This document shows, piece by piece, positions 43,821-60,500 of a stretch of DNA of 64,000 bases. The stretch's first letter is position 1. Every line of letters starts with the position of its first letter. The position numbers and the translations under genes were made by a program. The notes beneath the pieces are model-generated. The model was not told the DNA's origin. It was given only the letters and a program-made list of their open reading frames with translations, and made no database searches. This DNA comes from Oscillospiraceae bacterium (GTDB taxonomy: Bacteria; Bacillota; Clostridia; UBA1212). The stretch spans positions 1 through 64,000 of the forward strand of contig SVJA01000006.1 of the NCBI GenBank assembly GCA_015069195.1. Reading direction: 5' to 3'.

Positions 43821-44491
43821 GTATGACGGGCATATCAATGCTCTGTGGTGAAAGTCCACCGAGGCGTAGTTACCGACGAACTCAAAAGCGACTTGCAAGT
43901 TTCACATCGTGAGGTGTGGGAGAGAAGAAGCAATAGCGAAATCGTAGCCTGACGGACAGAAACTCGGTACGAAGGCGTAATAGGCGGATAAGTTGGCAAG
44001 AGGCAATGAAGTCCAAAAGGTAACCGTAACCCTATTGCGTAAACCGAGCAGGTAGACGAGGAAAGAGTATTGGTTTATCCCGTGAGGTCTCATAGGCGGA
44101 GAAATCTGTAGTAACAACGAACTATGAGAAGTCAGCAGAGGTCATAGTACCGATTGGAAAAAAATCGGGAAGGACTGAACAATTCAAAGCGTCGAATTAA
44201 AATGTATGTTCTAAGCATAAGCCTGACAGAATGCGGTAGCAAGGCGTATCCTCGTGGAAGCATTACAACGTAAAGCAAAGATGACTTGGAAGCGGAAAGG
44301 AGAGGAGACGGAATATGTCAGAAATGCTCGAAAAGATACTGAGTGACGAAAATGTGAAGCATGCCGTTAAGAAAGTATGTGCCAATAACGGAGCAAGTGG
44401 AATAGATAAAGTTACAACCAAAGAACTTGAAGAATATATGAAAGAGAATTGGAGCAGTAGCCGACGGAAGAGAACAACTCCGAAGGTATAA
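43821..44491 (+). mobile_element. Truncated group II intron (5' RNA domains plus start of reverse transcriptase)
   Basis: From about 43821 the sequence has intron-RNA features: GTGGTGAAAGTCCACCGAGG in domain I, and AGAAGTCAGCAGAGGTCATA just before the ORF, a hallmark of bacterial group II introns. An intron-encoded reverse transcriptase starts at 44315 but ends after 58 codons. No domain V or VI is seen downstream, so the 3' part has been lost. The 5' boundary is estimated from the adjacent terminator. Confidence 0.75.
44315..44491 (+). pseudogene. ltrA: Group II intron reverse transcriptase, N-terminal fragment
   Basis: ATG 44315, preceded by GAGGAGACG, opens with MSEMLEKILSDENVKHAVKK, VCANNGASGIDKVTTKELEE and YMKENW: the RT-0 region of group II intron maturases (NxGAxGxDxxT). 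After residue 47 the sequence departs from the family and stops at 44491. About 350-400 residues, with the whole polymerase active site (YADD) and the maturase domain, are missing. It cannot be functional. Confidence 0.75.
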
Positions 44492-59295: not shown

Positions 59296-59366
59296 ATTGC
59301 CGATAAATTTTCTGGTTTAGTTCCCTTTGGTCCTAAAAAGAAAATTTATCGGCAATTCTTCGTTTT
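59296..59366 (+). terminator. argS terminator built around a palindromic repeat
   Basis: A 15-bp outer stem (59296-59310 with 59342-59356) encloses a copy of the GGTTTAG...CTAAAAAG palindrome. A T-run (TTCGTTTTTTAC) follows. The structure begins 11 nt after the argS stop. Confidence 0.7.
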
Positions 59367-59694
59367 TTACGGGTTAGTTGGCGTTTTCTGTGTGTGGAAA
59401 AATTCTGGTTTAGTCCCTACGGTCCTAAAAAGAATTTTACACGAGACTCAATTGCTTTTACGGAGTCTGCTGCAATTTAGTAAAGGTAAAATTTCTGGTT
59501 TCCTGACTTCGTCAGTAAAAAGAAATTTTTTAACTGCCACTCTCGTTTTATGCGTAAGAAAATAGCTTGGTTCCTATGGTCCTAAAAAGAAAATTTATCG
59601 GCAATTCTTCGTTTTTTACGAGTTAGTTGGCGGTTTATGTGTGTGGAAAAATTCTGGTTTACCTTCCTACGTCGGTAAAAAGAATTTTTCAGGC
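59311..59694 (+). repeat. Array of five copies of an imperfect extragenic palindrome
   Basis: Copies lie near 59311-59341, 59402-59435, 59490-59527, 59566-59592 and 59652-59688. The shared pattern is TCTGGTTTA, a variable apex (often CCCTACGGTC), then TAAAAAGAA. The pairing leaves a conserved GG/AA mismatch in each stem. The same element occurs inverted at 60320-60500 and near 39.87-39.95 kb. Confidence 0.7.
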
Positions 59695-59853: not shown

Positions 59854-59882
59854 TTGACAACAATTTTAGGGTAAAGTAGTAT
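59854..59882 (+). promoter_or_regulatory. Promoter of the candidate antisense RNA
   Basis: TTGACA (59854-59859) and TAGTAT (59877-59882) have a 17-nt spacer. No plus-strand protein gene follows, but the 3' end of a minus-strand mini-gene does. Confidence 0.7.
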
Positions 59883-59888
59883 ATTAAA

Positions 59889-59982
59889 AAGGACATAGCC
59901 CGAAACGGTTATACTCCTTGGTAATGTTTTAATGAGGATTGACTACGATCGTTTTGATGGTTGAGCGCAGTCATTTCTTTTG
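59889..59982 (+). ncRNA. Candidate antitoxin antisense RNA of a type I TA pair
   Basis: Transcription from the promoter at 59854-59882 would begin near 59889. A hairpin with stem parts GACT..CG (about 59941-59947) and CG.AGTC (about 59967-59973) is followed by ATTTCTTTT, a likely stop near 59980. The RNA of about 90 nt would be complementary to the last codon(s) and the 3' untranslated part of the 28-residue ORF on the other strand, as in txpA/ratA-type systems. Its existence is inferred. Confidence 0.5.
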
Positions 59983-60057
59983 ATTTATGTAGGCAAAAAA
60001 GTGCATGGAAATTTCTATGATGTAGAGTAGGATTAGTATTTTTTCATAATTGCTCAT
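59971..60057 (-). CDS. 28-residue hydrophobic peptide, candidate type I toxin
   Basis: On the minus strand a perfect ribosome binding site (AAAGGAGGTGATT) precedes ATG 60057. The 28-codon frame opens MSNYEKILILLYIIEISMHF and ends in the polar tail INQKK. One membrane helix with a charged end is the standard form of TxpA/Fst/holin-like type I toxins. A terminator with T-run follows at about 59889-59919 (minus orientation). A convergent antisense promoter lies beyond it. It is far shorter than usual gene-finder cut-offs and would be missed. Confidence 0.6.
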   Translation of the reverse strand: MSNYEKILILLYIIEISMHFFAYINQKK

Positions 60058-60061
60058 GTAA

Positions 60062-60115
60062 ATCACCTCCTTTCCGGCTGTCTGCAAAAACTTGCAAGCA
60101 GCCTCCAAGGAGGAT
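60062..60115 (-). promoter_or_regulatory. Structured leader of the candidate type I toxin
   Basis: Upstream of the mini-gene on the minus strand, CCTCCTTGGAGG (about 60099-60110 in the plus orientation) is self-complementary and can also pair with the toxin's GGAGG. A hairpin GCTGCTTGCAAG...TTGCAGACAGC follows. Sequestered ribosome binding sites are common in type I toxin mRNAs. Confidence 0.4.
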
Positions 60116-60319
60116 AACTGCAACTATTTCGGGGCAATGCCCCCCCAAGGCGTGTGCCTTGTAGGAAAATGATGCCATAATGGGTATGTATTGTAAATGA
60201 TGTAAGTCATTATTTCCAGAAAATACTAAAGTCAGCACCGAGAAACGCTTGATATGACATGTTTCTGCGGCTTCTTGTGTGTCCGTTATTTCCCGAGATA
60301 AAAGCGATATTTCTTGCAA

Positions 60320-60500
60320 AAAATTCTTTTAACGACCGTAGGGAAGTAAACCAAGTTCCACCCGCCTCGTAAAAAAACATTATTCACAGAAAAATTCTTT
60401 TTACGACCGTAGGGAAGTAAACCAAGTTCCACCCGCCTTGTAAAAAAAACATTATTCACAGAAAAATTCTTTTTACGACCGCAGGGAAGTAAACCGGAAT
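60320..60500 (-). repeat. Tandem 71/72-bp repeat, 2.5 copies, each with the inverted palindrome
   Basis: AAAAATTC recurs at 60320, 60391 and 60463. Each unit holds ACGACCGTAGGGAAGTAAAC (one with GCAGGG) and, in the first two, CAAGTTCCACCCGCC followed by an A-run and ATTATTCACAG. This is the palindromic repeat of 59.3-59.7 kb in reverse orientation. The unit length and structure do not fit a CRISPR array. Confidence 0.75.

What the first reader, a model, noticed from the sequence alone, without database searches (positions are those of the whole stretch)
59854..60115. Unannotated type I toxin-antitoxin candidate: 28-residue peptide plus antisense RNA
A minus-strand mini-gene with a perfect AAAGGAGGTGA site encodes a 28-residue one-helix peptide with a lysine tail. 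Its mRNA would have a structured leader that can hide the ribosome binding site and a 3' terminator. A strong convergent promoter (TTGACA-17-TAGTAT) would make an RNA of about 90 nt complementary to its 3' end. This is the architecture of txpA/ratA-like modules, but the peptide sequence is not one I know, and it sits between argS and rplU inside a repeat nest.
Basis: partly seen in the sequence, partly recalled or inferred. Interest (0 to 1): 0.7.

Follow-up and report, generated by a model that had tools for sequence, protein, structure and literature searches.

The report
BsrG-like RNA-controlled toxin peptide module
A gut Clostridia bacterium carries about ten copies of a tiny predicted membrane-toxin gene held off by an antisense RNA, and the same RNA control scaffold recurs across many Clostridia with different short peptides.

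Summary
The 28-residue peptide is one of about ten dispersed family members in its own genome and about twelve in a second species of the genus. Nearly every intact copy has an SD, a lysine-tailed hydrophobic peptide under purifying selection, and a convergent promoter (mostly TTGACA-17-TAATAT) for an antisense RNA of about 90 nt. The new result concerns the mRNA: the 5' leader is complementary to the mRNA's own 3' terminator region. This pairing covaries strongly (24 modules: within-module -40 kcal/mol; shuffled pairings -27±1.2, 0 of 20,000). It competes with an anti-SD:SD hairpin in the leader. Folding predicts that antisense binding re-locks the SD, as for B. subtilis bsrG/SR4, which behaves the same way in the same calculation. 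A model of the antisense promoter and 5' element alone finds the scaffold in 64 of 391 Clostridia genomes, carrying peptides with no recognisable similarity. In this genus, 12 modules also carry a near-consensus Noc-binding site (nucleoid occlusion) by the toxin promoter; the window copy has only a degenerate one. Toxicity, expression and Noc control are inferred.

The parts
60210..60225 (-). Degenerate Noc-binding-site-like palindrome TATTTTCTGGAAATAA (11 of 16 to TATTTCCCGGGAAATA); sibling copies have 13-15 of 16 at this place
   Evidence: NBS consensus from PMC7383237
60169..60197 (-). Toxin promoter TTTACA-17-CATCAT with TG before the -10; siblings TTTACA-17-CATTAT
60147..60160 (-). 5'-terminal hairpin AAGGC-ACAC-GCCTT of the toxin mRNA; same place, different stem sequences in siblings
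60105..60143 (-). Leader element complementary to the mRNA's own 3' end; contains the anti-SD
60107..60113 (-). Anti-SD CCTCCTT
60076..60103 (-). Leader hairpin between anti-SD and SD
60063..60073 (-). Shine-Dalgarno AAAGGAGGTGA
59971..60057 (-). 28-codon predicted toxin ORF (with stop)
59886..59921 (-). mRNA 3' element and terminator CCAAGGAGTATAACCG..CGGGCTATGTCCTTTTT, complementary to the leader
59885..60163 (-). Predicted full-length toxin mRNA (about 279 nt; ends inferred from promoter and terminator)
   Evidence: z -5.3
59854..59882 (+). Convergent antisense promoter TTGACA-17-TAGTAT
59889..59982 (+). Predicted antisense RNA, about 94 nt: 5' hairpin resembling the toxin leader element, then terminator
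59941..59981 (+). Antisense terminator; its U-tract is the complement of the toxin's lysine codons and stop

Best explanation
This is one copy of a multicopy chromosomal type I toxin-antitoxin module that works like bsrG/SR4. The mRNA encodes a 28-residue membrane peptide, probably toxic when made in excess. As it is transcribed, its leader anti-SD (CCUCCUU) pairs with the SD and keeps it closed. Once the 3' end is made, the terminator-proximal element pairs with the leader over about 35 nt, takes the anti-SD away and loosens the SD, giving a stable, slowly translatable mRNA. The antisense RNA, made from the convergent promoter, is the exact complement of that 3' element and of the last codons. 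Binding there removes the leader's partner, lets the anti-SD close on the SD again, and creates a long duplex for RNase III. Shown by comparison: conserved ORF, both promoters, antisense terminator, covarying 5'-3' complementarity, competing SD hairpin. Inferred: transcription, toxicity, order of folding, RNase III. In this genus most sibling toxin promoters also carry a Noc-binding site at fixed spacing, so Noc probably modulates toxin transcription there (weak for the window copy).
For: Family: paralogues at 54% and 42% identity in the same genome, 10 hits in G000 and 12 in G002. ORF under purifying selection in one frame only. Antisense promoter conserved in 23 modules. Leader:3'-end duplex -40.2 kcal/mol within modules against -27.0±1.2 for permuted pairings, 0 of 20,000, repeated on 24 independently found loci (-36.8 against -28.5±0.9, 0 of 20,000). 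Leader versus antisense differences favour G-U-compatible changes 54:25, P=0.0015. Cost of opening the RBS: full-length 10.3, without 3' element 14.0, shuffled 3' element 13.9 kcal/mol (P=5e-7); antisense-bound 13.4, higher in 20 of 23; real bsrG gives 12.0 to 15.2 in the same calculation. bsrG has the same 5'-3' pairing, -43 kcal/mol, and SR4 is reported to lengthen the SD-blocking stem from 4 to 8 bp (PMC4147584; PMC6562991). A scaffold relative, L101, passes the Pfam Hol_Tox cut-off (24.1 against 23.3), as does BsrG (34.5). Noc sites.
Against: No expression, toxicity or binding data. The window peptide matches no Pfam or NCBIfam family. The energies are thermodynamic predictions without co-transcriptional kinetics, and even the full-length mRNA keeps the RBS fairly closed (about 10 kcal/mol). 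The window copy has a weaker leader:3' match than most siblings (rank 7 of 24 in its row) and a degenerate Noc site. The module is absent at this position in G002. Several copies in both genomes are decayed, so not all are under strong selection.
Confidence: 0.75

Rival explanations
1. hok/aapA-type logic: the 5'-3' pairing locks the full-length mRNA as an inert store, and 3' trimming opens it; the antisense RNA then acts only on the trimmed form.
For: The 5'-3' long-distance pairing and metastable anti-SD hairpins are as described for aapA (PMC6733600). Full-length folds are very stable (z -5.3).
Against: Removing the 3' element makes the RBS harder, not easier, to open in 22 of 23 modules, because the leader anti-SD then takes the SD.
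Confidence: 0.15
2. RatA-like: the antisense RNA works only by RNase III decay; the 5'-3' pairing merely protects mRNA ends.
For: RatA and SR5 act this way in B. subtilis (PMC6562991).
Against: Predicted RBS closing on antisense binding resembles bsrG, not txpA; the anti-SD lies inside the covarying element.
Confidence: 0.2
3. The peptide is not a toxin but a small membrane regulator kept low by antisense RNA.
For: No toxicity data; some small one-helix peptides regulate enzymes.
Against: Many dispersed, decaying and tandem copies and dissimilar hydrophobic lysine-tailed peptides on one scaffold fit addiction modules better. Some peptides reach or approach Hol_Tox.
Confidence: 0.1
4. A repeat element (MITE-like inverted repeat) with a chance ORF.
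For: The site lies in a nest of imperfect repeats, and leader and antisense form a DNA inverted repeat.
Against: In-frame purifying selection, conserved SD and promoters, excess of G-U-compatible changes; repeats flank, and in some copies interrupt, the module rather than form it.
Confidence: 0.03

Closest known systems
bsrG/SR4 (B. subtilis prophage SPbeta; Pfam Hol_Tox PF16935)
   Same: MxxYE..L N-terminus, one hydrophobic helix, lysine tail; antisense RNA overlapping the 3' end; long 5'-3' helix (P1); SD in a hairpin that antisense binding is predicted to strengthen
   Different: 28 instead of 38 residues; the window peptide is below Pfam detection; antisense about 90 nt starting in the terminator element; chromosomal multicopy family outside any recognised prophage here; this copy has no Rfam BsrG match
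txpA/RatA and bsrE/SR5
   Same: Convergent genes, 3' overlap, small hydrophobic toxin; bsrE has a fold like bsrG (PMC6562991)
   Different: RatA and SR5 are reported not to change the conformation around the RBS
par/Fst (RNA I/RNA II of pAD1)
   Same: Convergent promoters, short toxin, SD hidden by the leader, overlap at the terminator
   Different: In par the two RNAs read direct DNA repeats, so the antisense pairs with the SD region (PMC7472228). Here the repeats are inverted, so the antisense resembles the leader and cannot cover the SD. No PXXXG motif.
hok/Sok and aapA/IsoA
   Same: 5'-3' long-distance pairing and competing anti-SD hairpins
   Different: There the full-length mRNA is inert and 3' trimming activates it; folding predicts the opposite sign here
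C. difficile type I modules (CD0956.2-RCd10 etc.)
   Same: Clostridia, convergent overlapping genes, lysine-tailed hydrophobic peptides, multicopy
   Different: 34-59 residue toxins reported to lack similarity to other type I toxins, largely in prophages (PMC6563280); not compared here at sequence level

Membership tests
Type I toxin-antitoxin module | Short hydrophobic peptide with its own SD and conserved coding frame | tested here: met
Type I toxin-antitoxin module | Antisense RNA gene overlapping the toxin mRNA | tested here: met
   Promoter, 5' element and terminator conserved in most of 23 modules; transcription itself not testable
Type I toxin-antitoxin module | Peptide toxic, antisense neutralises it | not testable with these tools
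   needs experiment
TxpA/BsrG (Pfam Hol_Tox PF16935) | Window peptide reaches the family cut-off | tested here: not met
   no match; 6 of 24 relatives weakly, best E 0.013
TxpA/BsrG (Pfam Hol_Tox PF16935) | A relative in the same peptide and scaffold family reaches the cut-off | tested here: met
   L101 peptide 24.1 bits against cut-off 23.3
bsrG/SR4-like RNA control | Long 5'-3' helix in the toxin mRNA | tested here: met
bsrG/SR4-like RNA control | Antisense binding at the 3' end increases SD sequestration | tested here: inconclusive
   Predicted in 20 of 23 modules and for bsrG itself; not measured
par/Fst | Direct repeats giving antisense complementarity to the SD region, and PXXXG motif | tested here: not met
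   Repeats are inverted; the peptide has no proline; criteria from PMC7472228
hok/aapA long-distance-interaction type | 3' trimming opens the RBS | tested here: not met
   Removing the 3' element raises the RBS opening cost (prediction only)
SOS-controlled type I module (TisB-like) | LexA box in the toxin promoter | tested here: not met
   The shared palindrome is the Noc site; it is absent from the lexA upstream region of this genome
Noc-site-bearing promoter | NBS TATTTCCCGGGAAATA next to the promoter and Noc with QKKR residues in the genome | tested here: inconclusive
   Noc present (308.8 bits, cut-off 315; QKKR read from the sequence). 12 sibling modules have 13-15 of 16; the window copy has 11 of 16

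The most novel reading that the evidence does not exclude
In this genus a nucleoid-occlusion protein controls a dispersed set of antisense-regulated toxins. Noc bound at sites abutting or 10-11 bp upstream of the -35 hexamer represses or tunes toxin transcription, so toxin supply is tied to the state of the nucleoid, or the cassettes double as Noc-loading sites spread round the chromosome. More broadly, Clostridia share one RNA control cassette (leader, antisense and terminator elements) onto which unrelated membrane peptides have been swapped.
Probability: 0.4. Interest if true: 0.8.

Novelty: new variant of a known kind. Interest (0 to 1): 0.55.

Why it matters
It adds a large, apparently unannotated set of type I modules in Clostridia (64 of 391 genomes sampled at a strict cut-off, up to 12 per genome) that current family models do not name. 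It gives a simple test of how a 3'-binding antisense RNA silences a distant ribosome binding site, since dozens of natural covariants exist. If the Noc sites act on transcription, it links chromosome segregation to toxin control, which I did not find described in the papers held.

Tried and rejected
LexA/SOS control: rejected; the palindrome seen upstream of recA and recN is the Noc site, and lexA lacks it. Shared leader/antisense sequence as mere duplication: rejected by covariation and G-U bias. par/Fst direct-repeat logic: rejected, the repeats are inverted. Phage or plasmid carriage: a sibling peptide had no tblastn match in either collection. Rfam: none at gathering in the modules; one weak BsrG match for L003, E 0.11. 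The Hol_Tox model run on the whole genome gave only sub-threshold hits. Conserved position between argS and rplU: not found in G002. Noc sites in modules of other families: absent, best 11 of 16. A covariance model with base pairs could not be made from MAFFT rows, so R1 is sequence-only. Literature search for Clostridia scaffold or Hol_Tox work found nothing specific.

Full report
What is there. On the minus strand between argS and rplU, the window holds a promoter (60197-60169), a structured leader, a perfect SD, a 28-codon ORF and a terminator; a convergent promoter at 59854-59882 faces it. The antisense RNA would run from about 59889 to 59982. Its terminator U-tract is the complement of the toxin's lysine codons, so the lysine tail does double duty. 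The same arrangement recurs in most intact copies.

Family. A tblastn-type search of the window's own genome (2.0 Mb in 23 contigs) found two more copies at once. A profile found ten in G000 and twelve in the other genome held for the genus, G002. G002's loci match the public roe-deer-colon metagenome assembly RGIG4242. Some copies are tandem (L006/L009) and some decayed: a frameshift (L055), an internal deletion (C16:63868), leaders interrupted by another repeat (L014, L087, L094), a lost 3' end (L013). Relatives with the same peptide type occur in other Clostridia families. The coding frame has pN/pS 0.29-0.37 within the two main groups; the other frames have 0.8-1.95.

The RNA switch. Leader and mRNA 3' end are complementary over about 35 nt. 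I took leader windows at a fixed distance from the start codon and 3' windows from the terminator, then compared within-module with permuted pairings: -40.2 against -27.0±1.2 kcal/mol, none of 20,000 permutations reaching the observed mean. Because the antisense RNA is the complement of the 3' end, the leader resembles the antisense RNA rather than pairing with it. Differences between the two favour G-U-compatible changes 54:25, which a plain DNA inverted repeat would not predict; the modules are related, so that P value is only indicative. The leader also holds an anti-SD that closes on the SD in the nascent RNA (SD 90% or more paired in about half to two thirds of the modules and always mostly paired except L012). 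The two pairings exclude each other. The cost of opening the RBS is 10.3 kcal/mol for full-length mRNA, 14.0 without the 3' element and 13.9 with a shuffled one, and 13.4 with the antisense-covered region masked. The real bsrG sequence, fetched from phage SPBc2, has the same 5'-3' helix and gives 12.0 to 15.2 on masking, in line with the published effect of SR4 (PMC4147584; PMC6562991).

Scaffold wider than the peptide. A sequence model of the antisense promoter and 5' element alone hit 64 of 391 Clostridia genomes, 43 of 222 genera, but 13 of 398 in a phylum-wide draw that includes Clostridia. Of 29 loci read outside this genome, 24 gave a short ORF by a mechanical filter, mostly hydrophobic, SD-led and ending in basic residues; two of the failures carry an ORF of the MAKK type that the filter missed, and in two others the filter picked an overlapping ORF instead of the MAKK one. 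The peptides differ from the YE type (for example MENDYIISFMIILLLLVISIKK, MIKYILRIIFLIIVFLITFTIKVK, MEIVYIVSITIVSIIAILAIRNIKK). The leader:3' pairing test repeats on these 24 loci (-36.8 against -28.5±0.9, 0 of 20,000). None of the scaffold was found in Rfam, and ten tested peptides reached no Pfam or NCBIfam cut-off.

Relation to known toxins. BsrG passes Pfam Hol_Tox (34.5 bits) and so does L101's peptide (24.1, cut-off 23.3), a member of the same peptide and scaffold family. The window peptide itself does not. So it works like bsrG/SR4 and is probably a divergent relative, but I do not file the window peptide as a Hol_Tox member.

Noc sites. Twelve sibling modules in the two genomes of the genus carry a palindrome matching TATTTCCCGGGAAATA at 13-15 of 16 positions, ending 10-11 bp before, or overlapping by 1-2 bp, the -35 hexamer in those where the promoter is clear; random sequence gives 13 or more in 4 of 3000 windows. 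This is the Noc-binding site (consensus in PMC7383237). The genome encodes a Noc-like protein (308.8 bits, just under the curated cut-off of 315) with the Q, K, K, R specificity residues at the aligned positions (read by eye). Seven of 42 such sites in the genome fall in module promoters (P about 5e-15). Modules of other families lack them. The window copy has a degenerate site (11 of 16). Whether Noc acts on transcription is not known.

Limits. Everything rests on sequence comparison and folding energies. Transcript ends are inferred, toxicity is untested, and related modules are not independent observations.

Noticed in passing
window 43903-44175: Group II intron RNA domains (Rfam RF02001 and RF01998).
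   Followed up: no
window 60319-60495 and 59305-59690: Imperfect repeats GAAAAATTCTTTTTACGACCGTAGGGAAGTAAACC, three tandem copies 71-72 nt apart with inverted relatives on the other side of the module; similar repeats lie near other copies in the genome.
   Followed up: partly
L014, L087, L094: Another repeat of roughly 150 nt (..TTTTTTGCGAAAA..GAGTGAGTGATG..) interrupts the leaders of three copies just upstream of the SD.
   Followed up: no
L027, L051, L039: Noc-site palindromes also lie upstream of recA, the recN operon and ctsR in this genome, some next to promoters.
   Followed up: partly
L120, L130, L131, L138: In these scaffold relatives the predicted toxin (MAKKLL..) starts about 40 nt after the SD and is overlapped by a short ORF in another frame, suggesting translational coupling.
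   Followed up: no
L013 and L117: A module with toxin and leader but no 3' element, and an antisense gene with no recognisable toxin (next to a tRNA gene): natural half-modules.
   Followed up: no
L151, L153: Scaffold in another class of the phylum with a quite different basic peptide (PIKLTFHIGIFKISIEIKFRHRN..), up to nine element matches per genome.
   Followed up: no
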